From Dermatophilaceae bacterium Soc4.6 (lineage in GTDB: Bacteria; Actinomycetota; Actinomycetes; Actinomycetales; Dermatophilaceae), in assembly GCA_039889245.1 (NCBI GenBank), contig JAZGVH010000002.1, positions 4,588,001 to 4,652,000 on the forward strand: 64,000 nt of DNA. The letters are read 5' to 3'. Position numbers and translations under genes: made by a program. Positions 19,208 through 58,386 of this stretch are shown here, piece by piece. Under the pieces are notes generated by a model that made no database searches, had not been told where the DNA came from, and saw only the letters and a program-made list of their open reading frames with translations. Numbering within the stretch: the stretch's first letter is position 1; every line of letters starts with the position of its first letter.

Positions 19208-21207
19208 CCATCGCGCTGCACGCCAACCGGGCTGGCGCGCTGAGCCTGCTGGACAAGCTGGGAGCGGCTGTCCGACCGGAGTTCGCGGTCGACCTGATCC
19301 ACATCGATCCCACCCACCCCGTCTTCGCGCGCGGGCAGTGCCGCGTCACCGACTGCGAACGCGGCGCCTGGACCAAGTTGCTGTGCAACAGCCACTACGG
19401 ACGGTGGGTCCACGAGGGCCGCCACGACCTGGACCTGTTCGCGGCCACGACCGGCCCGGTGGTCGGCGGTCACAGCGACCGGATCGACGCGTTCGATCTT
19501 CGCGGGTTGCCGTTGCAGCTGCGGTTGGAGGTGGCCTACTCCATTCAGATCCGCCACGATCATCGAACGATCCGCCTCGTCCCGATGATGATCAACCGCC
19601 TCGTGAGGCTGGTCAGTACCGCCAGGGTCGACTCGCTGCTGGACCACGGGCTGGAGCGCTGGACCTTGCTGGCCCTCGAGCACGGCCTGACCGACACCGG
19701 TGGCCGGGCGATGGGCCAGCTGCGTTTCGCGTGGCGGCAGGTGCTCGACCTGGACGAGGGCATCGACGCCGAGGCCGAGTTCGCTCGAGACACCTGGCGG
19801 GCAGCCGCACTCGGGGCGCGACCGTCGCCGAAGAAGGTCCCACCCATTCGGTTCGACCACATCCCACAACCGTGGCTGCGTGAGGCGATCAAGCGAGCCT
19901 GCCGCTACCGGCTCGGCGCCGGTAAAGCGTTCGGATCGGTCAGCATCGACGAGCGTGCCCTGCGCTGGTTCGCCGGGTTCCTGCATCACCATCACCCGGA
20001 CGTCGATGATGCCAGCGGGATCAGCCGGCAGGTCCTGGAGCACTACCTGTCCTGGCTCACCGCGGCGCCGCAGTTGTCGGGCAACACGACGAACACCTAC
20101 CTGGTCATCCTGCGCAGCTTCCTGCAGGCCTGCCACCGCCACGACTGGATGCCCGGCCTCTCCGGTCACGCCGCGCTGTACCTGGACGAGCTGCCACCGC
20201 GGCCGCGTCCCCTGCCACGGTTCATCCCCGAGTTCGTGATGGCCCAGCTCGAGGACCCCAACAACCTCGCCCTGCTCCCCGACGAGACCACCCGACACCT
20301 GCTGATCCTCATCCAGGAGACCGGCCTACGCGCCAATGACGCCTGCCTGCTCGAGTACAACCCCGTCATCGTCGACAGCGCCGGCTGGCCCTGCCTGAAG
20401 TACGTCAACCACAAGATGTCCACCGAGCAGCTCGTCCCGCTGTCGCAGCGGGCCGCCGACGCCGTCCGCGCCCAACAACTGCACCTGAGCAGCCGCTGGC
20501 CAGCCGGATGCCCGAAGCTGTTTCCCTCGCCTCACGCCAATCCCGATGGGGCCCAACCATTCTCCTACGCCACCCTGCGCCAGCGCCTAGCCGACTGGCA
20601 GGAGAAGATCAGTCTCCACGACGAAGCCGGCCAGGCCGTGTCCGTCACCGCGCACCAGTACCGTCACACCCTCGGGACCCGGTTGATCAACGCCGGTGTG
20701 CCGCAGCACGTCGTTCAGAAGATGCTCGGCCACGCCTCACCCCAGATGACCGCCCGGTACGCCACGATCCACGACGCCACCGTCCGCGCGGCCTTCGACG
20801 ACTACCAGCAGCGGCGCGTGGACATCCACGGTGACCGCCTCCCGTTCGACCCCCACGGTCCCAGCGCCGACGCCGAGTGGATCAAGCACAACCTCGCCCG
20901 GGTGCAGGCCAGCCTGCCGAACGGCTACTGCGGACGACCACCGCAGCAGGACTGCCCACACCCCAACGCCTGCCTGACCTGCCCGGACTTCCAAACCACC
21001 ACGACGTTCCTGCCGATCCACCGGCGCCAACACGACGACACCCTCGAACTGATCGACCTGGCCGAGCACCGCGGCAACCACCGGCTGGCCGACAACCACC
21101 GCAAGGTCGCCGACAACCTCACGAGGATCATCTCCGCGCTGGAAACCCTCGAGACCCTCGGGATCCATGACGCCCCAGCCGGACAGGACACCCCCGATGC
21201 GCGCTGA
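19204..21207 (+). CDS. tnpB: Tn554-type tyrosine recombinase TnpB
   Basis: 667 residues, close to the size of Tn554 TnpB. A cysteine/histidine cluster near residues 46-63 (CRVTDCERGAWTKLLCNSH) and another in the C-terminal part (CGRPPQQDCPHPNACLTC) suggest zinc binding. The core is a tyrosine recombinase with Arg in ETGLRANDACLL, HQYRHT, His in LGHASPQMT and Tyr in ARYATI. It works with TnpA to excise and integrate the element without a conventional target duplication. Confidence 0.9.
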   Translation: MTIALHANRAGALSLLDKLGAAVRPEFAVDLIHIDPTHPVFARGQCRVTDCERGAWTKLLCNSHYGRWVHEGRHDLDLFAATTGPVVGGHSDRIDAFDLRGLPLQLRLEVAYSIQIRHDHRTIRLVPMMINRLVRLVSTARVDSLLDHGLERWTLLALEHGLTDTGGRAMGQLRFAWRQVLDLDEGIDAEAEFARDTWRAAALGARPSPKKVPPIRFDHIPQPWLREAIKRACRYRLGAGKAFGSVSIDERALRWFAGFLHHHHPDVDDASGISRQVLEHYLSWLTAAPQLSGNTTNTYLVILRSFLQACHRHDWMPGLSGHAALYLDELPPRPRPLPRFIPEFVMAQLEDPNNLALLPDETTRHLLILIQETGLRANDACLLEYNPVIVDSAGWPCLKYVNHKMSTEQLVPLSQRAADAVRAQQLHLSSRWPAGCPKLFPSPHANPDGAQPFSYATLRQRLADWQEKISLHDEAGQAVSVTAHQYRHTLGTRLINAGVPQHVVQKMLGHASPQMTARYATIHDATVRAAFDDYQQRRVDIHGDRLPFDPHGPSADAEWIKHNLARVQASLPNGYCGRPPQQDCPHPNACLTCPDFQTTTTFLPIHRRQHDDTLELIDLAEHRGNHRLADNHRKVADNLTRIISALETLETLGIHDAPAGQDTPDAR

Positions 21208-21595: not shown

Positions 21596-21652
21596 CCGAC
21601 GCAGACATGCAGGTCACCGGCCACATCCGACCAAGTGCTCCAGATAACGTTC

Positions 21653-31521: not shown

Positions 31522-31635
31522 ACCAACTCCACCGTTGCGGACCCACCCACCGGAGCGGGCCGTCGAAGCGAGAACCCGGTGAGTGTCCACCGGCGACGGG
31601 TTCCGTGGCATACGAGAAGAGAAAGGAGACTCACC

Positions 31636-32091
31636 ATGCAGGGAGAACGTCGCAGGAACCCGTACCCCCTCACCTGGGAGATCCCGCTGGCCGTCCTCGT
31701 CGCGGCCGTCCTGCTGGCCGTCCTCGGCGTCCACGCCGGACGGGCAGTGGCGAACCTGGTTGCTGGCGCTGGTCTCACCCTCCCCCCGCGAGCGGAGCTG
31801 TTCACCAGCGTGGTCGCTGTCTTGCGGGGGGATGCCGGGGCGGGGCTGACGGGCGCACACGTTCCGGCGGCCCGGCTGGCCGGAGCTGCGGCGGTCACGG
31901 CGTGGGTCACCGTCGTCGAGACGCTGCTGCTGGCGCTGCTCATGTGGGCGGGGAGGGTCGGACTCGACCGGTGGGGCCCTGGTCGGATCCAGGGCATGGC
32001 CACACGGGAAGAGGCCGAACGGCTCCTCGGCCGCTCCCGACTGCGCCGGACGAGCGCGGTCGTCCGGCCCGACCTGTACGGGCGACGTTGA
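31636..32091 (+). CDS. Small membrane protein coupled to the coupling protein
   Basis: 151 residues from ATG 31636, with AAAGGAG ten bases upstream (longer frames lack a site). Two spans: about 15-40 (EIPLAVLVAAVLLAVLGVHAGRAVANLVAGAGL) and 78-102 (LAGAAAVTAWVTVVETLLLALLMWAG). The cytoplasmic end reads GMATREEAERLLGRSRLRRTSAVVRPDL. This is the arrangement of the split membrane half of VirD4-type proteins in actinomycetes. The stop overlaps the start of the VirD4-like gene (TGATG), and the two are likely partners. Confidence 0.75.
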   Translation: MQGERRRNPYPLTWEIPLAVLVAAVLLAVLGVHAGRAVANLVAGAGLTLPPRAELFTSVVAVLRGDAGAGLTGAHVPAARLAGAAAVTAWVTVVETLLLALLMWAGRVGLDRWGPGRIQGMATREEAERLLGRSRLRRTSAVVRPDLYGRR

Positions 32092-33677
32092 TGAACCGGC
32101 CCGCCGTGCCGTGGCCGTGGAGGGGATTCGTCCCCGAGCAGGTGGGGTGGCGTCTCGGCCGCGGGCAGCAGCCCCGCGGAGGGGAACTCTGGATCCCGTG
32201 GGACCGCACCGCCGGAGTCATCGGACCACAAGGCTCCGGCAAGACCCTCGACCTGCTCATCCCCGCACTCCTCGGCGCCCCCGGCGCGGCCCTGGTGACC
32301 CTGACGAAGGTCGACGACCTCCTGCTCAGCATCACCGCCCGCAGCCGACCGATGTCCACCCCCGGCGGCGACCACATCACCGGCCACCGAGGAGGAGCGG
32401 GAACGAAGGTGACTGGGGGGCAGGAGTGTCCGTGCGTGGTCCTCGACCCGTTCGGGCTCGCCGTCGGTCTGCCCGAGCTGGTGTGGGACCCGATCGAGGG
32501 GTGCGTGGACCCGGTCGTGGCCGAGCGGCGGGCCAAGGCCTTCACCGCCGGGACCGTCACGGGTGCGGTCGCTGGCGGCCATGGCGACGACGCCGCCCGG
32601 TTCTATGCCGCCGAGGCCGCGAAGGTCATCCAGGCCTACTTCCACGCCGCCGCCCTGACCGGGCGGTCCCTCGAGGACGTCCTGCGGTGGGTCGCGAGCC
32701 CCCGCAGCGCGACCGACCCGACCGAGATCCTGCGCGAGCACCCCCACGCCGCCCCGTTTTGGCACGGGCTGCTGCACGGCGCCCTCCACGGCGACGACCG
32801 GACCGCGGGCAACACCACCACTACTGTGCAGCAGGCGATGAACCTGTTCTTCCAGGAACCGATCCGCCGCCGCTGCGTCCCCGGCCCCGGCCGGCCCGCC
32901 ACCGACATCGCCGACGTCATCCGCGCCGGCGGCACCATCTACCTCCTCGGCCGCGAAGACCCCTACGCCAGCGCCTCCCCCCTGATGACCGCCGTCGCCG
33001 AGCACGTCCTCGACACCGCCCTACAGCTGGCGCAGACATCCCCGTGGGGTCGGCTGTGCCCACCGATGCTGGCCTGCCTGGACGAGCTGCCGTCGACCGC
33101 GCCGCTACCGACCCTGCGCACCCGGATGGCGAACGAGCGCGCGCTCGGGATCTCGTTCATCTGGGCCGCGCAGACCCGACCCCAGCTCTCGGCGATCCTC
33201 GGCGACCAGGAGGCGCGGACCCTGCTGGGCCTGACGAACAACCTCATCCTCTTCGGCGGGTCCAAGGACGTCGCCTTCAACCAGGAGATCTCCGACCTCC
33301 TCGGGCCCGTCCGGATATCCCGCACCACCTGGCAGACCGGCCGCATGGGCGGGCGAAACACCACCGGCGATGACATCCCCATCCTCACCGGAGCCGAGGT
33401 CCGCCAGCTCAAGGAACGCCACGCCCTCGTGGTCTCCGAGAACGGGAAACCCCTCATCGCACAACTCACCCGCTGCCTCGACGGCCGCACCGGGAAAGCC
33501 CTCCTGGCCGACCAACAGGACGCCAAGAACCGCCTAGGCGCGCACCCAGAACATCACGTCGCCGCCCACGACCGGAAGACCGCAGCCCTCGAGATGTCAC
33601 GGCGTCACGGCCTCGCTGCCGACCGGGTCGCTGCACCGGATGCTGATCATGATGCTGTCCACGACACCAGGTTCTGA
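32091..33677 (+). CDS. VirD4/TraG-type coupling protein
   Basis: 528 residues. Walker A GPQGSGKT at about 44-51 and Walker B LACLDELPS at about 326-334. The usual T4CP sequences surround them (LVTLTKVDDLLLSITARSRP, VLDPFGLA, YLLGREDPYASASPLMTAVAEHV, SFIWAAQTRPQL, NNLILFGGSKD). It lacks its own membrane spans, which are probably provided by the preceding small protein. Coupling proteins receive the relaxase-DNA complex and pump it to the channel. It overlaps both neighbours by TGATG. Confidence 0.92.
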   Translation: MNRPAVPWPWRGFVPEQVGWRLGRGQQPRGGELWIPWDRTAGVIGPQGSGKTLDLLIPALLGAPGAALVTLTKVDDLLLSITARSRPMSTPGGDHITGHRGGAGTKVTGGQECPCVVLDPFGLAVGLPELVWDPIEGCVDPVVAERRAKAFTAGTVTGAVAGGHGDDAARFYAAEAAKVIQAYFHAAALTGRSLEDVLRWVASPRSATDPTEILREHPHAAPFWHGLLHGALHGDDRTAGNTTTTVQQAMNLFFQEPIRRRCVPGPGRPATDIADVIRAGGTIYLLGREDPYASASPLMTAVAEHVLDTALQLAQTSPWGRLCPPMLACLDELPSTAPLPTLRTRMANERALGISFIWAAQTRPQLSAILGDQEARTLLGLTNNLILFGGSKDVAFNQEISDLLGPVRISRTTWQTGRMGGRNTTGDDIPILTGAEVRQLKERHALVVSENGKPLIAQLTRCLDGRTGKALLADQQDAKNRLGAHPEHHVAAHDRKTAALEMSRRHGLAADRVAAPDADHDAVHDTRF

Positions 33678-40040: not shown

Positions 40041-40466
40041 CTAGGGGCGGGCTCGGACGGGCGAAGCGACTACTGCCGCGAGCGGAGGGCAGGCGCAGTT
40101 GGGCTGCCACAGGGCGCATTTCCGAGGCAGGGTGGCCCGGGCCCCTCGCGGCGGGGGACGCTGGCCGCTCTCTCGGCGGCGGGAGCGCGAACCGCTGGAT
40201 GTCGGCGCGCCTGCTCAGGGGGATGCTCGAGCCAGGCCGTCACAAGACTGCCTCGTCAGCTGATACGTGAGTACCCTACAGGCGGCGAAGTGGGACGGCC
40301 GCTATCGCGGCGGTGTGGGACGGCCGCTATCGCGGCGGTGTGGGACAGCCGCTCTCGCGGCGGTGAGACGCATCTCCGAACACGCACATGGCGGGATGTG
40401 CGGGCGCGTGGGCACATGCCCAAGGCTGCCATTTCCCCTCGTAGCGACGACGGGCCGCGTAACCGA
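40041..40466. other. Intergenic region holding the palindromic tandem repeat
   Basis: About 425 bp with no credible gene; the main feature is the three-unit repeat at 40291-40365. Confidence 0.5.
40291..40365 (+). repeat. Three tandem 25-bp units, each with an internal palindrome
   Basis: Units start at 40291, 40316 and 40341. Each reads TGGGACGGCCGC, then TATC (CTCT in unit 3), then GCGGCGGTG, so CCGC/GCGG can pair around a 4-base loop. Related single copies are seen at 39070, 39099 and 43551. The junction GCGGC/GGTGTGGGAC between units is the probable insertion point of both IS110 copies. Confidence 0.85.
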
Positions 40467-40829
40467 TCAGCGGTCGAGAGGTTGGTATCCGTAGGCCGCG
40501 AGCCGCTCCCGTGCGGCGTTACGCTCGACGTGGGTGAAGAGCGATTCGAAGCGGTGCTCGAGGATGCGCGCCTCGACCGTGAGGTCGAGGCGACCACGCT
40601 CCCAAAGAGCGGTGAAACCCTGTGAGGGTTGTGTGGACGTGACCAAGCGACGGGCAGTCTGCAGGGGGCCAAGTTCAGACAACATCTGCAAGAAGTAGGT
40701 GGCGTTGTAGCCGGCTTCGCTCTTCGCTTTCAGGTAGATGTCCCGCATCGCTGCAGCGAATGCTTGTTCGATGTCGTCGTCAGGCTGGGGAGCATCCACC
40801 CGCTGAGTGTGGCGCGATTCCGCCCGCAT
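40467..40829 (-). CDS. Conserved small protein next to the EVE-DUF3883 gene
   Basis: 120 residues. The core AFAAAMRDIYLKAKSEAGYNATYFLQMLSELGPLQTARRLV and GFTALWERGRLDLTVEARIL belongs to a widespread small family that I recognise by sequence but cannot name. It is all-helical without membrane spans. It follows the EVE-DUF3883 gene by 155 bp on the same strand, so the two may share a transcript. Homologues of this type often stand near restriction or DNA-modification genes, so a helper role in nucleic-acid surveillance is a reasonable guess. Confidence 0.7.
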   Translation of the reverse strand: MRAESRHTQRVDAPQPDDDIEQAFAAAMRDIYLKAKSEAGYNATYFLQMLSELGPLQTARRLVTSTQPSQGFTALWERGRLDLTVEARILEHRFESLFTHVERNAARERLAAYGYQPLDR

Positions 40830-40984
40830 GTCGACAGAAGGCTTGGTCGTTCACCCCCGACCTGAGCAGGCACCAGTCGGGGTCGGATGATCGACTGGGG
40901 ACGCGAGTCGCACTGTGCCCACGTCCGCACCCTCGCTCCGAGCAAGTACCCGCGTCCTGTCTGTGTCGCTGGGTGAAGGTCAGG

Positions 40985-42280
40985 TCAGGTCAGCGCCGTC
41001 GTGGTGGCTGGGGTCCACGAGTAGCCCTGTGCGACCAAGTCACCCGCGTCGGGGTCCCAAGATAAAAGCCGAAAGTTCCCTGCGGTCGGGTCGATCTCGC
41101 CGCCTGGCAAGAAGGCGACATCGGACAGGACGCCCATGATGCATTCTCCAGGGTGTCGTCGGGCGTGGTCGACCTCGCCGGACGTGACCAAGACGCTTGA
41201 GCCAGCAGAGACGGTGCCCTTCGCCTCTAGGTAGCGGATCTCGCCGTTGCGGGTGGCCGTCGCGTCAAATGGGTTCCCAAAACGGGTGTCGCGTACAACC
41301 CACCCCTGCCCTTCGAAGTGCTCCATTAGGCGGGTCTGTGCCGCGTCCTCGATCACCTTCCTCTTGACCGAGTCCAGTTGCCAACCCTGCCCCCCACCAG
41401 GCGGTGGTGTCGCAGCGAGGGACACGCCGAGGTGTCCTGCCCACATCGCCTCCAACGCGGCCAGAATCGTAGGTTGCAGTGTGATTCCGCTCATCTGGGT
41501 GTCCCAGTGCTGCTCCGGGAATCGGGCGGCGAGGTCGGCGGTGGGCAGGGCATCCTCGTGGGCGAGGAGGTGCTCCCACTGGACGAGGATATAGGGAGCT
41601 GTCTCTCCAGGGCGGTCAGCGTCGAAGTGTTGGTCCTCGAAGACCCTGCTCGTTGCGTGCCCGCTGCCGATCAGGCCACGAGGGCCGCGGCCCTGGAGCA
41701 GCAGAAAGACGGGGTCGCCTGGCTCGATGCCGCCGACGCGGTTGCCTACGGACCAGTTCTCCTTGACGGAGCGGCCTTTGATGGTCGCATCGACCCACCG
41801 TTCCCACACGCCGGGCGCTGGGGCCCAACGCTCGGGGTTGTTGGTCAGCAGGAAGGCGTTGGTTGGCGTGGCACGGGGCGTGGCTCGAGTGCTCGTGGAC
41901 AGGCGATCGAGGTCGTGAGTGTCGTAGTAGGTGACTGGATTCCGGTCGGGCCAATCAGCTTGGCCCACGAGTGCGTCCCGGATCGGATCTCCTGGGTGAA
42001 GAACATCTCCGAGCAACGCGACGTAGTCCTTGTCCTTTGTCTTGTCGTAGACAATCTCGTGGCCTGACAGTTCGGCCACCACCTGGATGCGGCCGCCATG
42101 CGACAGCGTTGCGTAGCGTTCGACCCGCACCCTCGCTTCAGAGAGCACCCATATGCCCCGGTTCTGCTCCCAGAGTTCGTTGTCGCTGAGTGTTTCGTCC
42201 CAACCAAACCAGGACCGTCCCCACCCTTCGGTCTGGGGATCGACGTGCTGGACGTCGCTGAGCTTGAAATTGATGGCCAT
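40985..42280 (-). CDS. EVE-like domain plus DUF3883 nuclease-like protein
   Basis: 431 residues. ATG 42280 is preferred because GTGGAG lies eight bases upstream. There are three regions. About 1-125 is an N-terminal domain of unknown type (DVQHVDPQTEGWGRSWFGWD). About 142-285 is an EVE/PUA-like domain (RWVDATIKG, VGNRVGGIEPGDPVFLLLQG, GLIGSGHATS). About 305-390 is a DUF3883 domain of the PD-(D/E)xK kind, with D339 in NPFDATA and E352-x-K354 in YLEAKGT, followed by SVLVTSGEVDHAR. EVE domains read modified bases, and DUF3883 is found in restriction-like systems. I infer modification-dependent nuclease or regulatory activity. It is divergent from the DUF1643 gene. Confidence 0.75.
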   Translation of the reverse strand: MAINFKLSDVQHVDPQTEGWGRSWFGWDETLSDNELWEQNRGIWVLSEARVRVERYATLSHGGRIQVVAELSGHEIVYDKTKDKDYVALLGDVLHPGDPIRDALVGQADWPDRNPVTYYDTHDLDRLSTSTRATPRATPTNAFLLTNNPERWAPAPGVWERWVDATIKGRSVKENWSVGNRVGGIEPGDPVFLLLQGRGPRGLIGSGHATSRVFEDQHFDADRPGETAPYILVQWEHLLAHEDALPTADLAARFPEQHWDTQMSGITLQPTILAALEAMWAGHLGVSLAATPPPGGGQGWQLDSVKRKVIEDAAQTRLMEHFEGQGWVVRDTRFGNPFDATATRNGEIRYLEAKGTVSAGSSVLVTSGEVDHARRHPGECIMGVLSDVAFLPGGEIDPTAGNFRLLSWDPDAGDLVAQGYSWTPATTTALT

Positions 42281-42472
42281 GCTGCAGTCTCCACCCGCGA
42301 CTACCCTCGGATCCAGTGGGTCTGGCGTTGCGATCGCCCGCCGGGGCAAGTGACGCCTGCATCCCGTTCAGCCCCTCCTGCGTGTCGGGATCACCACCAA
42401 GACCGCCATCTCGTGGCGGGTGTGGACGGCCCAACTCCCGGCGAAATACTCAGCGATCGTCGCGTAACCAAC

Positions 42473-42498
42473 TTGGTTCGGAAACCGAGCGGTATGAT
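42473..42498 (+). promoter_or_regulatory. Probable promoter of a leaderless DUF1643 transcript
   Basis: TATGAT at 42493-42498 ends six bases before the GTG start at 42505, so transcription would begin at the start codon. A candidate -35 box TTGGTT (42473-42478) is only 14 bp away, shorter than ideal. No ribosome site precedes the GTG. Confidence 0.4.
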
Positions 42499-42504
42499 CG
42501 GTCG

Positions 42505-43500
42505 GTGCCCGACACCTTCGCACGACTTGCATCAGACAACGACCTGGAGGATCGGGTAGGCCGGTCACTGGAAGGTTTGACCGAGAGGTACCTGTATTCG
42601 TCAGACATGGTGTTTCGATACGCCTTTGGACGGTGGTGGGGAGACACGGAACTCGGCACTACCGCGATATGGGTACTGCTGAACCCCGCAACCGGCGACA
42701 CCGAGCAGCGTCACCGACCCACCCTGGAGCGGTGCATCTCCCGGTCGCGGGCCGCCGGGCACACCGGGTTGGTCATCGTCAATCTTTTCGCCCTGCGCAA
42801 TACCGACCCACGTAACCTGCGAACCGCACGTGATCCCATCGGGCCCCCTAACAACGAGGTACTTCGTGTCTTCACGACAGCGGGTGCGCAGACAATCGCC
42901 GCGTGGGGCGGATCTGGCCGACTCAACGGACGCTCTGCACAAGTCGGTCCCCTGCTGGGCTCACCCATGTGCCTCGGCACAACTCGAGACGGGGAACCTC
43001 GTCACCCGCTTTATGTTGCCGCGGACACCCCACTGGTCCTGTGGGTGCCGCCGCGTCTAACGCAGGGTGCTCGGAAGGGCGGCTCCGGGCACACGCGGGC
43101 CGCGGCGCTTCTGCGGTGCCCACCCCCGGTCGCCCGCGGTACCGTCGGCGCCCTGTTCGACCGCGAACCGGTCCAGTTAAGCCTGCGCGGCGACGCCTAC
43201 CTGTGGCGCGAACTGCGGGCCCAGTTCGCGACCACCCCCCTTCCCTCGGACTGGCACGAGCTGCGCCAGCTCCTCGAAGACGGCATAGGGAGGGTGGTCA
43301 GGGATCTCCTCGTGCCCCAGGAATCGCTCGGCCGGCACGACGCCGCCGCCGCCGCGGTCTATGTCCCCGCGTTCGACCCCGGTCATGGCATGTCCGCTGG
43401 GGCCGTTCAGCCCACATGGTGGTCACACACCGGAATACCGATCGTCATCGACCGATTCGAATCACAACACCGGCCGGAAGGTACGGCCGACGCCGAATGA
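42505..43500 (+). CDS. DUF1643-domain protein
   Basis: 331 residues from GTG 42505. Residues about 30-185 form a DUF1643 domain: YAFGRWWGD, IWVLLNPATGDTEQRHRPTLERCISRSRAAGHTGLVIVNLFALRNTDPRNL, and AWGGSGRLNGRS. The remaining 145 residues are an unassigned extension (GDAYLWRELRAQFATTPLPSDWHELRQLLEDGIG). DUF1643 proteins are common beside restriction or repair genes and on mobile elements, but the biochemical role is not established. It starts 225 bp from the divergent EVE-DUF3883 gene and probably has a leaderless mRNA. Confidence 0.8.
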   Translation: MPDTFARLASDNDLEDRVGRSLEGLTERYLYSSDMVFRYAFGRWWGDTELGTTAIWVLLNPATGDTEQRHRPTLERCISRSRAAGHTGLVIVNLFALRNTDPRNLRTARDPIGPPNNEVLRVFTTAGAQTIAAWGGSGRLNGRSAQVGPLLGSPMCLGTTRDGEPRHPLYVAADTPLVLWVPPRLTQGARKGGSGHTRAAALLRCPPPVARGTVGALFDREPVQLSLRGDAYLWRELRAQFATTPLPSDWHELRQLLEDGIGRVVRDLLVPQESLGRHDAAAAAVYVPAFDPGHGMSAGAVQPTWWSHTGIPIVIDRFESQHRPEGTADAE

Positions 43501-43621
43501 TGTCGCTGCCCTCTCGTTCCACAACCCCAGGCATGGTTGGCTCGCAGCCGAAGGGGACGGCCGCAAACGCGTCCGCTGAGAAGCCGTTCGACGTCCGTCG
43601 TCGAGGGCTAGTCTCCGTTCC

Positions 43622-44368
43622 ATGAGTGACCGAGCGGCGATCTTGGACCAACTGACCGAAAATCACGTGATCGCCGCCGGCTGGGCAGAGGCCCTGCGAA
43701 GCGTCGACCCCGAGATCGATCGCAGGATCGACGCCTGCCTCACCCGGCTCGCCACGGCAGGACCCTACCTGCCGGCGAGAGCGAACCTCTGGCGGGCATT
43801 CGAGGTGCCACTCAAGGACGTTCGCGTACTGATCCTCGGCCAAGATCCTTACCCCAATCCGCAACACGCTGTCGGACTGAGCTTCTCCACCGGTCCTCAA
43901 GGCCCGATCCCAGCATCGCTTCACAACATCTACCGCAACCTTGAGCAGTGCGGCTACCCACCTCCCGCCGACGGAGACCTCTCTGCCTGGACCGAGCAGG
44001 GCGTGATGTTGTTAAACCGCGCGCTCACTGTGCCGCTCAACGTAACGGCTCGACCACGTCGGCATCTGCGCTGGTGGGCGCCGGTGATCATCCCCACGAT
44101 GAAGGCCATCGCCGTGGAGGCAGCAGAGCGCCCGGTAGCCGCGTTGCTGTGGGGGGCAGCAGCACACCGCATGCGCCACTACCTCGAGCCCAGCGTCAAG
44201 GTCTTCGCTGCGAGCCACCCCTCGCCGCAATCAGTCAATCGCAGAGCTGGGGCAGAGGGACCGTTCCGCGACGCCCGCCCCTGTGCCGACGTGAACAAGT
44301 GGTTCGTTCAAGGCGGTGCCCCAGAGGTGGACTGGGCCCTCGCCGGACCGGAGGGCGCCGGCACATAG
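43622..44368 (+). CDS. ung: Uracil-DNA glycosylase, family 1
   Basis: 248 residues from ATG 43622. The water-activating motif GQDPYP is at 73-78 with Asp75. The uracil-binding stretch AVGLSFS follows at 83-89, then VMLLNRALTV at 128-137. The DNA-intercalation motif is HPSPQS at 199-204 in place of the usual HPSPLS, with the catalytic His199 kept. The enzyme removes uracil from DNA to start base-excision repair. Housekeeping ung is normally elsewhere, so this is probably an extra, mobile-borne copy. In this setting it may belong with the neighbouring nuclease-like genes. Confidence 0.9.
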   Translation: MSDRAAILDQLTENHVIAAGWAEALRSVDPEIDRRIDACLTRLATAGPYLPARANLWRAFEVPLKDVRVLILGQDPYPNPQHAVGLSFSTGPQGPIPASLHNIYRNLEQCGYPPPADGDLSAWTEQGVMLLNRALTVPLNVTARPRRHLRWWAPVIIPTMKAIAVEAAERPVAALLWGAAAHRMRHYLEPSVKVFAASHPSPQSVNRRAGAEGPFRDARPCADVNKWFVQGGAPEVDWALAGPEGAGT

Positions 44369-44454
44369 CAACCCTGGGCCAACGGCTACCCGCGTTCACG
44401 CGGCTGAGCGAACCGCTCGGAAGCAGACCGGGGGGCTGCACTCGCGGCTACTAG

Positions 44455-46299
44455 GACCCTGCTGAACAAGGCTCGTTCGTGGGTCGCGGTCGTCATTCAG
44501 GGGACGGCAGGGTGCCGACTGGGGCGCTCAGGGCACCCCGGAGGGCTTGTTCCTCGCGAGACCAGAATGATGTTCCGGTTGGTGTGAGGGAGTGCGGGGC
44601 CTGTGTGGGGCCTGCAGGGGTGGTGGACGGGGGGTTCTGCCTCGTTCGTGGGCTCAGGCCAGGACCCAGGCTCCGTCGGTGCGGGTCAGGCCGAGGTTGA
44701 GCAGCCGGCGTAGGTTCAGGGCGGCGCTGCGGGTATGGAGCCAGGCGTTGTTCTTCCGCACGCCGCGGTAGCGGACCCGGCGGTTCCTCCCGGCCACGAG
44801 CCACGAGATCGAGCGTTCCACCATCGGTCGGTGCTGGCGGTAGTCCGCTTGCCAGGCCGGGTCCTTCGCGCGCTGACGATGCTCGCGCAGCAGCGTGTGA
44901 TGCCGGTGCAGCTGCAGGATCCGGCCCCGCTTCGCGGTGGTGCACCGGGCCCGCAGCGGACAGCCGACGCACCCGATTCCGAAGGTGACGGTCCGGCTCT
45001 TGCTGATGGGGCGGGTCAGGCCGTTGGGGCAGGTCGCGGTGCCGGCCTGCTCGTCGACGGTGAAGTCGTCCTGGGTGAACCCGCCTTCGACGGCGGGCTT
45101 GAGGGGGCCGGGTTTGACCAGCGGACGCCGCCGCGCCGCGGTGATCTTCTCCAGCGCGTCACCGGTGGCGTAGGCGCTGTCCCCCAGGACGTCGACGACC
45201 TGCCCGTCGGGGAGATCGGCCGCCGCGGGCAGGGTGTCGTCCGCGTCCATCAGCCGCATCCCGGTCGCCCCGTCCGGCGCGAGCGGGCCCGCGCCCTTGG
45301 TCAGCTCGCACGCGGTCGTGATCCCGGTCTCGGGCTCGACCGCGATGTGCGCCTTGAAGCCGTCCTGACGCCGGTGCACCGTCTTGTGGATGTGCCGGGC
45401 CTCGGGGTCGACGATGCTGATGACCCGATCGGGGGCGACCTTCCGCGCGATCCGCCACCGGCCGTCGGTCCCGTCCGACCCGGGCGCAGGTTCGACGTCC
45501 TGCCCCGCGATCAACGCCAGCAACGCGACCGCCTCCGCGCCGACCTCGTCGAGGTCCCACCCGGACACGACCTCCAGCAGCGCGAGGGCGTCACGCACCA
45601 ACGCGTCGACCAGCACCGCCCGCGCCTCGCGGTCGTCCCAGGCGATCTGGGGCTTACCCGGGTCGTCGTAGTCATGCGCGCAGCACACCGTCGCGACGAC
45701 CTCGCCCGCGCCGGGGACCTGCCGGACGACCTTACGGATCACCGCGACCAGCTGCGTCACGGTGTCCTGCGTCGCGACCGCATCATCCAACGCGGTCGAG
45801 TCCAGGGCCCGCCGGTTCTTCCCCGTCAACACCCCCGTCTCGGCGACCACCACCTTGACCGCGTCGAAGATCCGATGCGGCGCCGCGCTCCCCGCCAACC
45901 GCTTCCGCCAGTACGTCAACGTCGACGGGTCGAACCCGCCATGCCCGACCGGCAGGCCACACGCGACCTTCCACCGCAGATCCGTACGCAACGCCGCCAT
46001 CGCCTCCCGGTCCGAGAGCCCATGCAACGACTGCAACACCATCACCGACGCCGCGACATCCGCCGGCACCGACGGGCGACCCAACCGGGTCGGGAACAGA
46101 TCAGCGAACATCACCTCCGGGAACAACACCCGCCGCTGCTGCGCCAACAACCCGAACACACTGCCCTTGTCGATCAGATGCCCCGCGACCGACTCAGCAT
46201 CCAACAGCTCACGCGCATCCAGCGGACGACCCTGCATCCACACATGATCCCAACCCCCGACCAGCGCGACCAGGACGACACGCCTTATTCAGCAGCGTC
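44455..46299 (-). mobile_element. IS1182-family insertion sequence, copy 2
   Basis: Ends GGACCCTGCTGAACAAGG and, from the right, GGACGCTGCTGAATAAGG, flanked by CTAG at 44451-44454 and 46300-46303. IS110 copy 1 has a single CTAG at the same place (36159-36162), which shows directly that insertion duplicated CTAG. Confidence 0.92.
44654..46237 (-). CDS. IS1182-family transposase, second copy
   Basis: 527 residues from ATG 46237 (MQGRPLDARELLDAESVAGHLIDKG); an ATG two codons upstream is also possible. Domain layout and motifs are those of the copy at 5291-6874, with scattered substitutions (for example DLPDGQVVDVLGDSAYATGD and CVGCPLRARC). The frame is intact, so this copy could act on both elements. 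It reads opposite to the IS110 gene it precedes. Confidence 0.92.
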   Translation of the reverse strand: MQGRPLDARELLDAESVAGHLIDKGSVFGLLAQQRRVLFPEVMFADLFPTRLGRPSVPADVAASVMVLQSLHGLSDREAMAALRTDLRWKVACGLPVGHGGFDPSTLTYWRKRLAGSAAPHRIFDAVKVVVAETGVLTGKNRRALDSTALDDAVATQDTVTQLVAVIRKVVRQVPGAGEVVATVCCAHDYDDPGKPQIAWDDREARAVLVDALVRDALALLEVVSGWDLDEVGAEAVALLALIAGQDVEPAPGSDGTDGRWRIARKVAPDRVISIVDPEARHIHKTVHRRQDGFKAHIAVEPETGITTACELTKGAGPLAPDGATGMRLMDADDTLPAAADLPDGQVVDVLGDSAYATGDALEKITAARRRPLVKPGPLKPAVEGGFTQDDFTVDEQAGTATCPNGLTRPISKSRTVTFGIGCVGCPLRARCTTAKRGRILQLHRHHTLLREHRQRAKDPAWQADYRQHRPMVERSISWLVAGRNRRVRYRGVRKNNAWLHTRSAALNLRRLLNLGLTRTDGAWVLA

Positions 46300-46303
46300 C
46301 TAG

Positions 46304-52023: not shown

Positions 52024-55000
52024 TCAACGCTCTGGTCCGACGCGGACGTTTGCCAGCCGTGGGTCAGCTCGTCTTTCCCGTTCTGCGACGGAGCTCTTGG
52101 ATGTCGGGCGTGGTCGAGGGGAAGCGGAAGCTGTGGGGGAGGTGGGTGGTCCGAGGTCGAGGGGGAGCTCGGCGATCAGGCGGTAGCGCAGGTCCTGGGC
52201 GGGAAGGTGTCCTAGCGGGCTGGCGGCCACGAGTCGGTGGCAGATGACGGTGACGTCGTACCCGTCGCGGTCGGCGAGGGTCATGATGGCGGCCAGTGCG
52301 GGCCAGTCGCTTTGGGATGGCAGCCGGGGGTCGAGGTGGTGGGCGAGTCCGGCCCATCGGGTGGTCGGGTTGGGGTGGGTTGCCGCGGTGTGGGTGGCCA
52401 TCCGGTCGCGGATGTGTGGCGTCGCGGCGAGCTGCGCGTTAGCTGCGGACCGCGGGTCGCTGTTCCAGGCGTCGACGGCTGTCGCGAGCTGCCGGGTGGC
52501 CTGGTCGGGGGGGATCTGGTACCGGCTGGCGATGGTGGCCGCTGCGCTGCGCCAGGTGGCTGCTGGTCTGGCTGCGGCGACCTGTGTTGCGTGGGTGAGG
52601 GCGTCATGGCCGGTGAGGTGGTCGAGTCGTTCCTGGAGGAGCCGCTCGCCCAGGGGTTGCGCGGTGGCCAGGGCCTGGATGAGTGCGTCGGGTCCGTGGC
52701 GGGCCAGGAGGTCGGCTGGGTCGGTGCCGTCGGGGAGGGTGGGGGTGAGGGGGTCGAGGCCGTGGGGGGTCAGGAGCCAGAAGTCGCGTTCGGCGGCGAG
52801 GTGGCCAGCGTGGTCGGCGTCGGTGGCCACGATCGGGGCGCGTCCGAGGGTGTGGCCGAGGTGGGCGAGCTGCTGGGCTTGTTCTTCGGTCAGTGCGGTG
52901 CCCAAGGGGGCGAGTCCGAGGTAGGGGTGGGCGGTACCGGTGCTGGCGAGGGTGACGGCCCAGGCGTCGAGCGGTCCTTCGACAAGCACGGGGGTAGCGC
53001 CGTTCCCCGGGTGCCCCTGCTGCCCCTGCTGTCCCGGCTGCTGACTCGAAGGGGGCGGGTTGAGGAGGTCGGGGTGGAGTCCGAAGAGCTGGGCGCCCTT
53101 GTGGAACAGGGCGGTGTCGGCGGTGTTGAGGTATTTCGGTCCGGCCCGGTGACCGCCCGCGTGCTGGCTGTGGGCGTCACCGGTGCTGTCGGTGTTGGTG
53201 GTGGTGGTGGGGGTGTCTTCGGTGAGGTCGGGGTGGCGTCGGGCGACGAAGCCGAGGATGTGGGTGGGGTTGTGGGGGTGGGTGATGGGCATGGTGACGC
53301 GGTCGCGGAAGCGGTCGATGAGGCGGCCGGTGCGAGCGAGGGTGGCGACGCCGGTCTCGGTCATCTCGAGGTCGCTGACGCCGAGGCGCCGTAGGTGGGT
53401 GACCAGGGTGGTCCAACCGGGTGGGGCGTAGCCGGGCTGCAGGTAGTGGTGGAGATGGGGGTGCTGGGCGGGGTCTTGGCCCAGGCGGGCGGTGAGGTAC
53501 CGCTGGGCCCAGCTGCCGGGGTATTGCTGCTGGAAGAAGGCGTGGGTGAGCCGGTTGATCTCGAGCATCCGTTCCGCGGGCACGGGGGCGAAGTCGAGGT
53601 CCGCGGCGTGGGTGACCTGCCGCTCGATGAGCGTGTCGCTGGGCTGGAGGGGTCCCATCGTGGCGCGGGTGAGGGCGGCGAGCTGCAGGCGCAGCTCGGG
53701 GTCGTCCGGGGTGGGAGGGACCGCATCTGGTGAACCCGCGCCGCGCCGCTGGGCCGAAACCGGGGCAGTGGATTTCCAAGTGCCTGAGTAATCCAGTGAG
53801 CCGGGTTCGTTGCGCGGATCCGGTGGTCGTTCCTCGTCGAGGTCCTCGGCAGATGGGGGAGGGGTGGTCATCGTCGACAGGCGCCACACCATGGCTTGGC
53901 ACGGGTCGACGTCCTCCTCGACCAGGACGGCGACCTCGCCCAGCGCGGCGTCTACCTTGGGGGCTGTGGCCAGGACCTCTGGCAGCGTCCAGCCGCGTTG
54001 GAGGGCGTGGTCGGTCGCGGTGATCAGGGCGGGCCACCAGCTGCTGGCCTGGATGAGGTCCGCGCGCTCCGACCCGACGCGGTCGATCAGGGCAGTGAGC
54101 CACTGTGCCCCGTGGGGGGTGTCGGGGCGCAGGGTCTGGGGGTGGGTGAGGTGGTGTCGGACGTCGGTGGCGACGGCGGGGGTGAGGTGGCGGCTGAGGC
54201 GCCACCACAAGGCGGCGGCGGCGTGGTCGTCCGGGAGGGGACCCTCGGCGAGGGCGGTGGTCAGGAGGCGGTGGGCGGGCAGTCCCGCGCGGGAGACCGC
54301 AGCCAGGCGTTCAGCGAGGAGGGGGACGAAGGCATCCGCGGCGTGGTGGTCCCGACCCCCACCGGGGGTGGCCGCTGCGGTCGGGGCGAGGACGTGGCCA
54401 AGGAGCTCACCCCATTCCTGCAGGGCCGGGGCGCGGTCGCCGGTGACGGCCCGGTCGAGGTGATGCTGCCACCGGACGGCAGTCTTCTGCAGCTGCGGCG
54501 GCCCGGTGGGTCGCCCGTCCTCCGGGTCCACCTGCATCGCGGCCCGCCAGACAGCGACATCGCCAAGGACCGCGGGCGCGGGCCGGCTAGATCCCTGCCG
54601 AGCCCAGACAGGAAGGGCGACTGACGTCGCACTCAACGCTGTTCCTCCCGTGGAGGGTGGTTGCTCGGTGGCGGCCGAGCGGACCTGGGTGGCCAGGTCC
54701 GCGACCCGGGCGTGCCTGCCCTGCAGGTAGTCGCCCCAGACGGGATGGTCGGCCAGGGCTGCGGGGATAGCAGGAAGCCAGGGCAGGGGTCCGGTCCCGG
54801 CGTTCCGCATCGCGTCGTCGTCGAGGCGCCAGTCGAGGACAGCTGCGCGGTCCTCGGCCGTGTCGAGCTCGCGCCCGTGCACGGCGGTGGCCAGGACGGT
54901 GCTGGGGTCGGCTCCATGGGCGGCGATCAGGACGAGGTGGGCGTGCAGGGTGGGCCAGGCGGGTTCGTCGGTCAGCCCGGGCAACAGGGTGTCGGCGGTG

Positions 55001-58000
55001 CGGGTGAGGTGGGTGTCGGCGGCGGGACCAAGGAGTTGTTCGGCGGCGACATGCAGGGCGTCGGTGTAGCGGGCGGTGGCGTGCCCGAGCGCGGTGGCGG
55101 CGTCGGCCAGGTGCCGTGCGGTGGTGGTGGCGGACTGGGGGGAGTCATCGCGGGCGAGGATGCGGTGCAGCAGGTCGGTGGCGGTCGCGGGGGACAGGGT
55201 GTCGGGGTGGATCGCCGTGTGGGGGTCGCCGTCGCCGACGACCTGCAGGTAGACGTGATTCGTCAAGCGGCCGCGGGTGAGCATCGTGTACAGCTGCTGG
55301 CGTGACTCGGTCCCGGTCGCGAGGCCGTGGACGGTGTCGACCGAGACCCCCTGCGCGCCATGGACCGTGGTCGCGTACCCGAGCTCGACAAAGGCGAGGA
55401 CGTACTCGGCCGGCAGGTGGATGATGCGGCCGTGTCGGGCGTGCTGCACCAATAGGCCGACCCCTCTGGCATGCGAGTCCGTGCCTGGGTCGCTGTCGCC
55501 TCGTCCGGGGTCATGGTCGGCGTCTTGCGCGCCCTCATGGATCTCGAGGACGGTCCACCGGTCGCCGTTCTTGACCCAGTCGGAGCCGCTGACCCGCAGT
55601 CGTCGGTCGTTGGTGCGGGTGATGATCAGGTCACCCGCTGAGGCGTGATTCCCGTCGGCGAGGAGCACACTCCGCCCGCATGCTGCGAAAGGTGCTGGTG
55701 CTTCTTGGTGATTGGGTTCCTGGGGTCCTGGGGGGTGTTCGGTCTGTAGGCGGTGGGTGCGGGCGCGGTGGTTGAGCTGGGCGACGAGGTCGCGGGTGGG
55801 GGCCAGCATGATCGCGTCGAGGGCCTGGTCGCGGTCGGTCTGCCAGGCGGTGAACACGTCGTGGGTGAGGGTGGCGAGGTCGCCGACGTGGACCCGGCCG
55901 TGGTCGAGGTAGAACCCGAGCGCCTCCGGCAGCCCGTCGCGCAGAGCCAGGGTCGCGGCGCCTTCGGCGGGGTCGGCGAACCGCAGAAGCTCACTCAGGC
56001 GCAGCGCCCCGTACGTGGTGTCGAGGTCGCGCAGGACCCCGCCGGCGCCGATCGCGGCGAGCTGCTGGTCATCACCGATGAGCCGGACGCTGGCCCCACG
56101 CGCGAGGGCGAACTCGATGGCGGTGTCCAGGGAGATTGTGTCGGCCATCCCGGCCTCGTCGATCACGACGAGGGTGTGGGGTCCGATGTCGTGGGCCCAG
56201 GGGGGGAGGTCGCCCAGGTGGGGGTGCTCGATGGTCCACGTGAGCTTGGCGAGGGTGTCCGTGCGTAGCGACGAGCCCGCCGAGCCCGCTGAGCCAAGGT
56301 GGTCGTGACTGTGGTCGTAGTCGTAGTCGTGGTCGTGGTCGGTGGGGTGGATTTGCTCGCGGAGGGCGGCTGCGGCGGCGGCCGAGGGGGCGAGGCCGAC
56401 GAGGGTGCCGCCGCCGTTCTCCCAGGCGGAGGCGAGGGCGCGCATGGCGGTGGTCTTGCCCGTTCCGGCGGGCGCGATCGCGAGCTGGAGCCGGTGTCCG
56501 GAGGTCGCCATGGACCGGACCAGAGCGGCCTGTCCGGCGTTGAGGGGGACCCCGTTCGCGGTCATCTCCAGCAGGGCGAGGTCGACCGCCTCGTCCGGGA
56601 CGGCGTGCCCGTCGAGGCGGGTACCGGCGGCGACGATCCGCTGTTCCGCGGCCAGCACCCGCGCGGAGGTGTAGAGGTCGGCGCCGTGGACGGTGTAGAC
56701 GCTGGACCCGTCCTGGCGGCGCAGCAGTGGGGGTTCGGTGATGCCGTCACCGTCCGGAGACAGCCGTACGGACCGGTGCTCGAGGACCTCAGCGACGAGC
56801 TGGTCGACGACGTGTTCAGGGGCCCCGGGACCGCCCGCTGTCGGGGTCGGCAGGTGCGTCTGTGGGTGTGATCGGAGCTGCCGGAGGGCTTCGGCGCGGA
56901 CGTGCCAGACCTGCCAGGTGCTGCGTCGTGCCTCGAGCGTGGCCAGGATCGTCGCGGCCGTCTCCTGCATCCAGGTGGCGTGCGTACTGGTGACCAGTGA
57001 CCCAGGGCCTTGCCCCTGTGCGGCGCTATTCGTGACCATTGTGTGGAGGGCGGTGCGGACCATGGCGGTGACGGCGTGGTCTGCGCCGAGGACGTCGGCG
57101 GCTTGGGTGCGCCAGGCGTGGCGTTGCTCGGCCAGGGTTCGGGGGGCCTTCTTGGCGTCGCGGGTCTCGAGGGTTGCTTGCTGGGCCAGCTGGATCGACT
57201 CGACCGGTGTGGGGGGCCGACCGTGGGTCGCCTGGAACGCCTTGGTCAGCTGGCTGCGGCGGGTCTCGATACTCGCCCGGCGTTGCGACCAGCGCTCGTT
57301 CAGGCGCGGGTCAACCCCGACGATCTCCCGGACAGCACGCTTCCCCGTCAACGAGTCACCGGCTGTGCCAGCGGTGACGGGGGCCGATCCCGGTCCCGAT
57401 ACTCGCTCCTCGAAACGCAGCCCGAGGTCGGCGGTGAGGTGCCGTTCGAGGGCGGTGTTGTAGGTCTCGGACGCGGCGACGTTGGCCTTGAACAGGACCC
57501 GGCCGTCGATGCTCAACCACTTCCCGTCGAGGGTTTGGACCTTGTTGGCGACGGCGACGTGGGTGTGCAGGTCGGGGTCGCCGGCGCGGGAGTCGCGGTG
57601 GGTGAACGCGGTCGCGACGAGCCCGTGGACGTTCACCTGCCGCACCCCGTGGGTGCCGGTCCGGGTGAACAGGGCGTGCTGCTCGAGGAAGGTCAGCGCG
57701 TCACGGACGGCGGCCTGGTGGGCGCGTTCGATCCGGGCGGCGGTGGCCGGGTCCGCGACCGCCCACAAGGTGCTGACGGACTTGACGGGGGAGAAGGTCA
57801 GGTCGTACCCGGCCACCGCCGTGGTCCGCGGACGGGAGTGCTTCGCGATCGTCGCGGCGATCTCGCGGGCATCCTCGGGGTCGCGGCCGTGCTCGGCGCG
57901 GAAGAACTCGACCGCGACCTGGGTCCGGATCCGGGCCCGGACCTCGGCCGGAACCGACCCCTGGTCAACCGGATTCCCCTCACCGCCTTGGGTGGTGAGG

Positions 58001-58386
58001 GTGGCGATGCGTTGGGCGACCTCGAGTCGGAACGTGGTGACGTCGGGGGAGTAGACCTTGAACGGTAGCCCGAGCCGGGTCACTGCCTGGTAGTTGTGGT
58101 CGCTCAGGTCGGGCCCCTGCAGCAGGTCCCGGCGCTGGGTCGCGAGGGGGTGGTGACCGGAGCCGAATAGGGCCTGCATCTGATCGGCGGTGACCGGGTC
58201 CCCGGCGCTCAGACCGTCGATGCCGGTCATGCCGGAGCCGACCCACTGCCCGGGGGTCTCGCCCGTGGCGGTGTAGTAGCTGGCCAGGCCGGTGTGGCCC
58301 TTGTCGGTCGCGTCCTGGGCCGCGACCTGCCGGGTCAGGTAGTCGTACCCGCTCCCCGCGGTCAGCTTGTGCATGGACATCGTCAC
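52024..58386 (-). CDS. MobF relaxase - RecD-like helicase - TOPRIM primase fusion
   Basis: 2,120 residues. N-terminal TrwC-type relaxase (about 1-390): the catalytic tyrosines are in GSGYDYLTRQV and the histidine motif is DLHTHVAVANK near 275. A RecD/UvrD-like helicase follows (about 600-1060): Walker A APAGTGKTTAM near 640, VVIDEAGM near 742, GDDQQLAAIG near 772, YATTVHGAQGVSVD near 1015. A long linker leads to a DnaG-type catalytic core (about 1605-1900), with RYLTARLG, GFVARRHPD, GPKYLNTADTALFHK, TOPRIM acids in LVEGPLDAW near 1800 and ATDADHAG near 1855. It nicks at oriT, unwinds and may prime the strand. Start GTG 58386; ATG 58380 possible. Confidence 0.92.
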   Translation of the reverse strand: MTMSMHKLTAGSGYDYLTRQVAAQDATDKGHTGLASYYTATGETPGQWVGSGMTGIDGLSAGDPVTADQMQALFGSGHHPLATQRRDLLQGPDLSDHNYQAVTRLGLPFKVYSPDVTTFRLEVAQRIATLTTQGGEGNPVDQGSVPAEVRARIRTQVAVEFFRAEHGRDPEDAREIAATIAKHSRPRTTAVAGYDLTFSPVKSVSTLWAVADPATAARIERAHQAAVRDALTFLEQHALFTRTGTHGVRQVNVHGLVATAFTHRDSRAGDPDLHTHVAVANKVQTLDGKWLSIDGRVLFKANVAASETYNTALERHLTADLGLRFEERVSGPGSAPVTAGTAGDSLTGKRAVREIVGVDPRLNERWSQRRASIETRRSQLTKAFQATHGRPPTPVESIQLAQQATLETRDAKKAPRTLAEQRHAWRTQAADVLGADHAVTAMVRTALHTMVTNSAAQGQGPGSLVTSTHATWMQETAATILATLEARRSTWQVWHVRAEALRQLRSHPQTHLPTPTAGGPGAPEHVVDQLVAEVLEHRSVRLSPDGDGITEPPLLRRQDGSSVYTVHGADLYTSARVLAAEQRIVAAGTRLDGHAVPDEAVDLALLEMTANGVPLNAGQAALVRSMATSGHRLQLAIAPAGTGKTTAMRALASAWENGGGTLVGLAPSAAAAAALREQIHPTDHDHDYDYDHSHDHLGSAGSAGSSLRTDTLAKLTWTIEHPHLGDLPPWAHDIGPHTLVVIDEAGMADTISLDTAIEFALARGASVRLIGDDQQLAAIGAGGVLRDLDTTYGALRLSELLRFADPAEGAATLALRDGLPEALGFYLDHGRVHVGDLATLTHDVFTAWQTDRDQALDAIMLAPTRDLVAQLNHRARTHRLQTEHPPGPQEPNHQEAPAPFAACGRSVLLADGNHASAGDLIITRTNDRRLRVSGSDWVKNGDRWTVLEIHEGAQDADHDPGRGDSDPGTDSHARGVGLLVQHARHGRIIHLPAEYVLAFVELGYATTVHGAQGVSVDTVHGLATGTESRQQLYTMLTRGRLTNHVYLQVVGDGDPHTAIHPDTLSPATATDLLHRILARDDSPQSATTTARHLADAATALGHATARYTDALHVAAEQLLGPAADTHLTRTADTLLPGLTDEPAWPTLHAHLVLIAAHGADPSTVLATAVHGRELDTAEDRAAVLDWRLDDDAMRNAGTGPLPWLPAIPAALADHPVWGDYLQGRHARVADLATQVRSAATEQPPSTGGTALSATSVALPVWARQGSSRPAPAVLGDVAVWRAAMQVDPEDGRPTGPPQLQKTAVRWQHHLDRAVTGDRAPALQEWGELLGHVLAPTAAATPGGGRDHHAADAFVPLLAERLAAVSRAGLPAHRLLTTALAEGPLPDDHAAAALWWRLSRHLTPAVATDVRHHLTHPQTLRPDTPHGAQWLTALIDRVGSERADLIQASSWWPALITATDHALQRGWTLPEVLATAPKVDAALGEVAVLVEEDVDPCQAMVWRLSTMTTPPPSAEDLDEERPPDPRNEPGSLDYSGTWKSTAPVSAQRRGAGSPDAVPPTPDDPELRLQLAALTRATMGPLQPSDTLIERQVTHAADLDFAPVPAERMLEINRLTHAFFQQQYPGSWAQRYLTARLGQDPAQHPHLHHYLQPGYAPPGWTTLVTHLRRLGVSDLEMTETGVATLARTGRLIDRFRDRVTMPITHPHNPTHILGFVARRHPDLTEDTPTTTTNTDSTGDAHSQHAGGHRAGPKYLNTADTALFHKGAQLFGLHPDLLNPPPSSQQPGQQGQQGHPGNGATPVLVEGPLDAWAVTLASTGTAHPYLGLAPLGTALTEEQAQQLAHLGHTLGRAPIVATDADHAGHLAAERDFWLLTPHGLDPLTPTLPDGTDPADLLARHGPDALIQALATAQPLGERLLQERLDHLTGHDALTHATQVAAARPAATWRSAAATIASRYQIPPDQATRQLATAVDAWNSDPRSAANAQLAATPHIRDRMATHTAATHPNPTTRWAGLAHHLDPRLPSQSDWPALAAIMTLADRDGYDVTVICHRLVAASPLGHLPAQDLRYRLIAELPLDLGPPTSPTASASPRPRPTSKSSVAERERRADPRLANVRVGPER
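56290..56345 (-). repeat. His/Asp-coding microsatellite inside the relaxase-helicase gene
   Basis: Short GTCGTA/GTGGTC-type repeats encode TDHDHDYDYDHSHDH within the helicase domain, between two conserved motifs. This looks like a surface loop expanded by slippage. Confidence 0.8.

What the first reader, a model, noticed from the sequence alone, without database searches (positions are those of the whole stretch)
40467..44368. Candidate base-surveillance or defence module: EVE-DUF3883, small protein, DUF1643 and Ung
Three features come together. An EVE-like reader is fused to a PD-(D/E)xK-type DUF3883 domain, with D339, E352 and K354 in place. A small conserved protein follows on the same strand, and a divergent DUF1643 protein and an extra uracil-DNA glycosylase complete the block. 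Readers of modified bases joined to nuclease-like domains act against modified DNA. A glycosylase that makes abasic sites in uracil-containing DNA would fit the same job. I know of no described system with this exact set.
Basis: partly seen in the sequence, partly recalled or inferred. Interest (0 to 1): 0.65.

Follow-up and report, generated by a model that had tools for sequence, protein, structure and literature searches.

The report
EVE-nuclease gene among unrelated mobile cargo
One of the four genes is a convincing, previously known type of enzyme predicted to recognise chemically modified DNA and cut it, but its three neighbours do not travel with it in the relatives examined, so the block looks like assorted cargo caught between insertion sequences on a mobile element rather than a new defence system.

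Summary
The four genes are really there. The 431-aa protein (40985-42280, -) has three parts: an uncharacterised N-terminal domain (1-125), an EVE-fold reader (about 140-286; best structural match Z 12.6, with 5mC-bound THYN1 and the EVE-HNH enzyme VcaM4I also matching) and a Hjc-like PD-(D/E)xK nuclease (DUF3883/NOV_C) with D339, E352 and K354 invariant in 15 sequences. It is best read as a stand-alone modification-dependent (type IV) restriction endonuclease, a class already described as EVE-PD(D/E)XK. The "module" is not supported. None of 17 relative loci (up to 10 kb flanks) carries the small protein, DUF1643 or Ung. None of 80 viral DUF1643 loci carries the other three, and a 297-genome class sample shows no co-occurrence beyond chance. 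The small protein is a domain otherwise found as the C-terminus of GmrSD_N proteins or alone. The DUF1643 ORF is an in-frame join with an unrelated small protein and has lost near-invariant motif residues. Ung keeps its catalytic residues but has a remodelled DNA-wedge loop. The block lies between directly repeated IS110 copies, in cargo space between the coupling-protein and relaxase genes of a conjugative-type element. Interest is modest.

The parts
40985..42280 (-). EVE-DUF3883 protein, 431 aa: N-terminal domain (1-125), EVE-fold domain (about 140-286), PD-(D/E)xK NOV_C/DUF3883 domain (about 300-425)
   Evidence: Pfam NOV_C; AlphaFold2 model and structure matches; 15-row alignment with D339/E352/K354 invariant
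40467..40829 (-). small conserved protein, 120 aa, downstream of EVE-DUF3883 after a 155-bp gap; relative of the C-terminal part of GmrSD_N (DUF262) proteins, also found stand-alone
42505..43066 (+). DUF1643 domain part of the ORF (GTG start inferred from a degraded paralogue in the same genome); S62, A64 and D71 of the family are A, G and R here
43147..43500 (+). C-terminal extension of the DUF1643 ORF: relative of a stand-alone family of about 100 aa, joined in frame through a low-confidence linker
43622..44368 (+). extra family-1 uracil-DNA glycosylase; catalytic Asp and His motifs kept, wedge Leu/Met replaced by Gln with a 6-aa insertion in the same loop
36173..39077 (+). left IS110-family element, split by a second IS110 (about 37373-38806)
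44450..46303 (-). IS1182-type transposase element; its left 200 bp recur identically at three other places in the genome
46313..47775 (+). right IS110-family element, 90% identical to the left one and in the same orientation
31605..33677 (+). TraG/TraD-type conjugation coupling protein (context)
52024..58386 (-). TrwC-type relaxase with helicase, primase and Toprim domains (context)
18059..21207 (+). two adjacent tyrosine recombinases (context)

Best explanation
The core of the finding is one protein, a probable stand-alone modification-dependent (type IV) restriction endonuclease. The EVE domain would flip a modified base out of incoming DNA into its pocket, and the Hjc-like PD-(D/E)xK domain (D339, E352, K354) would cut the DNA nearby. 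No protective methyltransferase is needed, because the host lacks the mark. Shown here: the EVE fold, the nuclease fold, conservation of the catalytic triad, and carriage on a mobile-type island. Inferred: base flipping, cutting and the identity of the modified base. The small protein, the DUF1643 ORF and Ung are separate cargo genes brought together between IS110 copies in the variable zone of a conjugative-type element, not subunits of one machine.
For: EVE fold: best match Z 12.6; VcaM4I, a proven EVE-HNH 5mC/5hmC-dependent endonuclease, Z 9.8 (PMC7897488). Nuclease fold: Hjc Z 8.8; triad invariant. EVE-PD(D/E)XK proteins are a described class of putative type IV enzymes (PMC7641849), and DUF3883 was called a novel REase domain (PMC3710099). 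The domains are modular: relatives have EVE+nuclease, N-domain+nuclease, or the N-domain alone. Relative loci sit by a Type ISP R-M gene (L131), a SNF2 helicase (L121) and a TrwC-type relaxase (L125). No co-occurrence of the other genes. IS bracketing and coupling-protein/relaxase context.
Against: No activity data. Window-specific changes in otherwise conserved positions (V for Q357; N in place of W in the 'TWNP' stretch of the EVE domain) could mean altered or lost function. The role of the N-terminal domain is unknown. The small gene lies co-directionally downstream, so co-transcription is possible.
Confidence: 0.72

Rival explanations
1. The four genes are one base-surveillance system: the EVE nuclease cuts modified DNA while Ung (and DUF1643) excise or detect uracil-type bases.
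For: Physical adjacency; two co-directional pairs diverging from about 42280-42505; the Ung is an extra, divergent copy with a remodelled wedge loop; glycosylases can be defence enzymes (Brig1, PMC11078745). The same genome has a degraded DUF1643 paralogue about 6.6 kb from another DUF3883 gene.
Against: No co-occurrence in 17 EVE-DUF3883 loci, 80 viral DUF1643 loci or the class sample; IS-bracketed patchwork; DUF1643 part divergent at near-invariant positions and joined to an unrelated family.
Confidence: 0.07
2. A two-gene unit: EVE-DUF3883 plus the small protein work together, the small protein acting as an accessory domain as it does when fused to GmrSD_N proteins.
For: Same strand, 155 bp apart; its relatives are C-terminal parts of GmrSD_N (type IV restriction family) proteins.
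Against: Absent from all 17 EVE-DUF3883 relative loci; in the class sample one genome besides this one carries both, against 2.3 expected; stand-alone copies lie beside metabolic genes in Rhizobium.
Confidence: 0.12
3. The block is a decaying remnant: the DUF1643 ORF has lost its stop and motif residues, and the nuclease may be inactive too.
For: Lost motif residues and fusion in the DUF1643 ORF; a degraded paralogue in the same genome; V for conserved Q357; insertion sequences on both sides.
Against: EVE-DUF3883, the small gene and Ung are full length with catalytic residues intact and normal coding bias.
Confidence: 0.09

Closest known systems
EVE-PD(D/E)XK putative modification-dependent restriction endonucleases (Bell et al. 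2020, PMC7641849)
   Same: EVE reader fused to a PD-(D/E)xK nuclease; mobile, defence-type setting; no adjacent methyltransferase
   Different: Extra N-terminal domain (1-125), also found fused straight to DUF3883 or alone in other actinobacteria; the main text of that paper does not name DUF3883
VcaM4I, EVE-HNH endonuclease (PMC7897488)
   Same: EVE reader domain fold (Z 9.8) ahead of a nuclease; presumed same logic of base flipping and cutting nearby
   Different: HNH, not PD-(D/E)xK, nuclease; no N-terminal extra domain
DUF3883 restriction-type proteins (e.g. SNF2-DUF3883, PMC3710099; MrcB_N-DUF3883 about 29 kb away in this genome)
   Same: Same nuclease domain
   Different: Different reader or motor partners
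Brig1/Brig3 defence DNA glycosylases (PMC11078745, PMC13160076)
   Same: UDG-superfamily enzyme on a mobile, defence-type island; possible use of a polar wedge residue (Asn in Brig3, Gln at the Leu-loop position here)
   Different: The window Ung is a canonical family-1 Ung closest to Mycobacterium Ung among solved structures; nothing here shows activity on modified bases

Membership tests
EVE-PD(D/E)XK modification-dependent (type IV) restriction endonuclease | EVE-fold reader domain | tested here: met
   Model residues 135-285: 2ar1 Z 12.6, 2eve 11.1, THYN1 10.5, VcaM4I 9.8
EVE-PD(D/E)XK modification-dependent (type IV) restriction endonuclease | PD-(D/E)xK nuclease fold with catalytic D...ExK | tested here: met
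   Hjc Z 8.8; D339, E352, K354 invariant in 15 sequences; Pfam NOV_C
EVE-PD(D/E)XK modification-dependent (type IV) restriction endonuclease | no cognate methyltransferase in the unit | tested here: met
   No methyltransferase among the neighbouring genes; the nearest found, a C5-MTase with NgoMIV-type endonuclease, is about 36 kb away
EVE-PD(D/E)XK modification-dependent (type IV) restriction endonuclease | cuts DNA only when a base is modified | not testable with these tools
   Needs protein and substrates
a conserved four-gene system (EVE-DUF3883 + small + DUF1643 + Ung) | genes co-occur at other loci | tested here: not met
   0 of 17 EVE-DUF3883 loci; 0 of 80 viral DUF1643 loci; class sample overlaps not above chance
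GmrSD type IV restriction (for the small protein) | GmrSD_N (DUF262) domain in the same protein | tested here: not met
   The window protein is 120 aa and has no Pfam hit; only its relatives are joined to GmrSD_N
family-1 uracil-DNA glycosylase (Ung) | GQDPY, LLNR and HPSP motifs, Ung profile | tested here: met
   NCBIfam NF003588 188.6 bits against cut-off 143; motifs present; best solved relative 2zhx E 2.8e-39
family-1 uracil-DNA glycosylase (Ung) | hydrophobic wedge residue (Leu/Met) after HPSP (typical, not strictly defining) | tested here: not met
   Gln with a 6-aa insertion; 29 of 30 class homologues have Leu or Met
Brig defence glycosylase | sequence membership of the Brig1 clade | not tested
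   Brig1 sequence not available here; best solved relatives are family-1 Ungs
UDG superfamily (for DUF1643) | UDG fold | tested here: inconclusive
   No clear match: best Z 5.5 (an esterase), poxvirus D4 UDG Z 4.6; profile comparison with Ung negative, but that Ung alignment held misframed rows

The most novel reading that the evidence does not exclude
The extra Ung with a glutamine wedge and an enlarged wedge loop is a specialised defence glycosylase acting on uracil-type or hypermodified bases in invading DNA, working alongside the EVE nuclease as a two-pronged base-surveillance island.
Probability: 0.06. Interest if true: 0.6.

Novelty: new member of a known kind. Interest (0 to 1): 0.22.

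Why it matters
It adds a three-domain EVE-DUF3883 protein to the predicted modified-DNA restriction enzymes and shows that its N-terminal domain, reader and nuclease shuffle freely in actinobacterial mobile DNA. The negative result matters too: it stops a four-gene 'system' being named from one accidental gene cluster. The divergent Ung loop is a small, cheap test of whether repair-type glycosylases are being turned to other substrates.

Tried and rejected
Close-relative scan of viral contigs with the EVE-DUF3883 protein: no match; with its alignment: 215 pattern hits, none confirmed. Phage records: no match. Small protein in viral contigs: none confirmed. PADLOC: nothing significant. DUF1643 as a UDG-fold protein: considered from its motif pattern; structure and profile comparisons did not support it clearly, so no catalytic role is claimed. 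DUF1643 neighbourhoods on Streptomyces plasmids show DUF4326 and a DNA cytosine methyltransferase, not Ung. C-terminal extension family: stand-alone ORFs in Rhodococcus, Curtobacterium, Pseudomonas and others with no common partner. Island DNA in 58 relatives: only the conserved Ung core, short repeats and other short stretches matched. Sigma-70-type promoter scan: nothing.

Full report
What is there. Pfam gives NOV_C (the current name of DUF3883) at residues 334-400 of the searched ORF, DUF1643 at E 2.7e-28 and UDG at E 4e-12; the small protein has no family. NCBIfam names the last gene uracil-DNA glycosylase above cut-off. PADLOC finds no significant match.

The EVE-DUF3883 protein. Homology places its start at the ATG at 42280, giving 431 residues. 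An alignment with 14 relatives shows D339, E352 and K354 invariant. The AlphaFold2 model is moderate overall (pLDDT 76.6, pTM 0.44) but fair to confident within domains. Residues 135-285 match EVE proteins (2ar1 Z 12.6, 2eve 11.1, THYN1 from the 5mC-DNA entry 10.5, VcaM4I 9.8), and residues 307-427 match Hjc-type PD-(D/E)xK nucleases (Z 8.8). Residues 1-125 form a further domain that occurs alone or fused straight to DUF3883 in other actinobacteria. Relatives come as N-EVE-DUF3883 (Gordonia, L122, 43% identical over 422 residues), EVE-DUF3883 (L121, L123) and N-DUF3883 (Arthrobacter, Kocuria, Sinomonas).

The neighbours. The small protein's relatives are either stand-alone or, in at least ten of 24 class matches, about 500 residues into long ORFs; the two tested by Pfam carry GmrSD_N. 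On plasmids it is stand-alone, in Rhizobium beside metabolic genes. The DUF1643 ORF probably starts at GTG 42505, because a degraded paralogue in the same genome (C2:2650811, 62% identical over 68 residues, internally deleted) begins at the matching place. Its C-terminal third is a different family that is stand-alone elsewhere; the linker has very low model confidence. The near-invariant S62, A64 and D71 of 66 aligned sequences are A, G and R here. DUF1643 itself is common on phages and conjugative plasmids. The Ung is a second copy; the genome's other Ung is at C2:1548788. It keeps GQDPYP, LLNR and HPSP, but the wedge residue is Gln, where 29 of 30 class homologues have Leu or Met, and six residues are inserted beside it.

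Is it a system? The 17 genomic loci found with the EVE-DUF3883 alignment, held with up to 10 kb of flanking DNA per side, contain none of the other three proteins. Eighty viral DUF1643 loci contain none of the other three, nor do the DUF1643 loci taken from class genomes. In 297 genomes of the class, leaving out this one, EVE-DUF3883 and small-protein matches overlap in one genome against 2.3 expected, EVE-DUF3883 and DUF1643 in one against 0.5, DUF1643 and small in none. Limits: the genome scan used two 9-residue patterns from the nuclease domain, the class sample is partial, and contig ends cut some flanks.

Setting. The block lies between two directly repeated IS110 copies (36173-39077, itself split by another IS110, and 46313-47775; 90% identical) with an IS1182-type element at 44450-46303 directly after Ung (identical ends elsewhere in the genome). 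To the left are tyrosine recombinases (18059-21207), an SLT/NlpC_P60 protein (30307-31521) and a TraG/TraD coupling protein (31605-33677); to the right a 2120-aa TrwC relaxase (52024-58386). Within about 36 kb, beyond the window, are an MrcB_N-DUF3883 gene and a C5-methyltransferase with an NgoMIV-type endonuclease. The region therefore reads as cargo of a conjugative-type element. No complete element with defined ends was shown.

Mechanism. The most likely reading is a single-protein type IV restriction enzyme: the EVE domain flips a modified base into its pocket, as shown for VcaM4I (PMC7897488), and the PD-(D/E)xK domain cuts nearby. Folds, triad and mobile setting are shown; base specificity and cutting are inferred. 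EVE-PD(D/E)XK proteins were described as putative modification-dependent enzymes in 2020 (PMC7641849) and DUF3883 as a REase domain in 2013 (PMC3710099), so this is a new member of a known kind. The idea that Ung adds a second, glycosylase arm, in the spirit of Brig1 and Brig3 (PMC11078745, PMC13160076), is not excluded but rests on adjacency and on one unusual loop.

Verdict. Observation confirmed. Interest 0.22.

Noticed in passing
window 43622-44368: Extra Ung with Gln at the wedge position (HPSPQS) and a 6-aa insertion in the same loop, unlike the 30 class homologues aligned.
   Followed up: partly
window 42316-43500: DUF1643 joined in frame to an unrelated family of about 100 aa that is stand-alone elsewhere (Rhodococcus, Curtobacterium, Pseudomonas, Persicobacter plasmids).
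   Followed up: partly
window 40282-40365: Tandem 25-bp repeat (GCGGCGGTGTGGGACGGCCGCTATC); similar arrays occur at G000:C2:4487577-4487807 and similar sequence in a congener.
   Followed up: no
L099 8812-9015, 15595-16605 and 17867-19501 (G000:C2:2650811 onwards): Second site in the genome with a degraded DUF1643 paralogue, another DUF3883 protein and a 1635-bp stretch 100% identical to the window's tyrosine-recombinase region (20014-21648).
   Followed up: partly
L100 4450-5886, 10974-13000 (G000:C2:4659449-4668000): MrcB_N-DUF3883 gene and a C5-methyltransferase with an NgoMIV-type restriction enzyme beyond the window's right end.
   Followed up: partly
L139, L140: Streptomyces plasmid operons with DNA cytosine methyltransferase, DUF4326, DUF1643 and a DnaB-like helicase protein in fixed order; DUF1643 may belong to a DNA-modification pathway there.
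   Followed up: no
L109, L113 and other class loci: GmrSD_N proteins of about 770 aa end in a conserved domain of about 100 aa that also exists as a stand-alone protein and has no Pfam model.
   Followed up: partly
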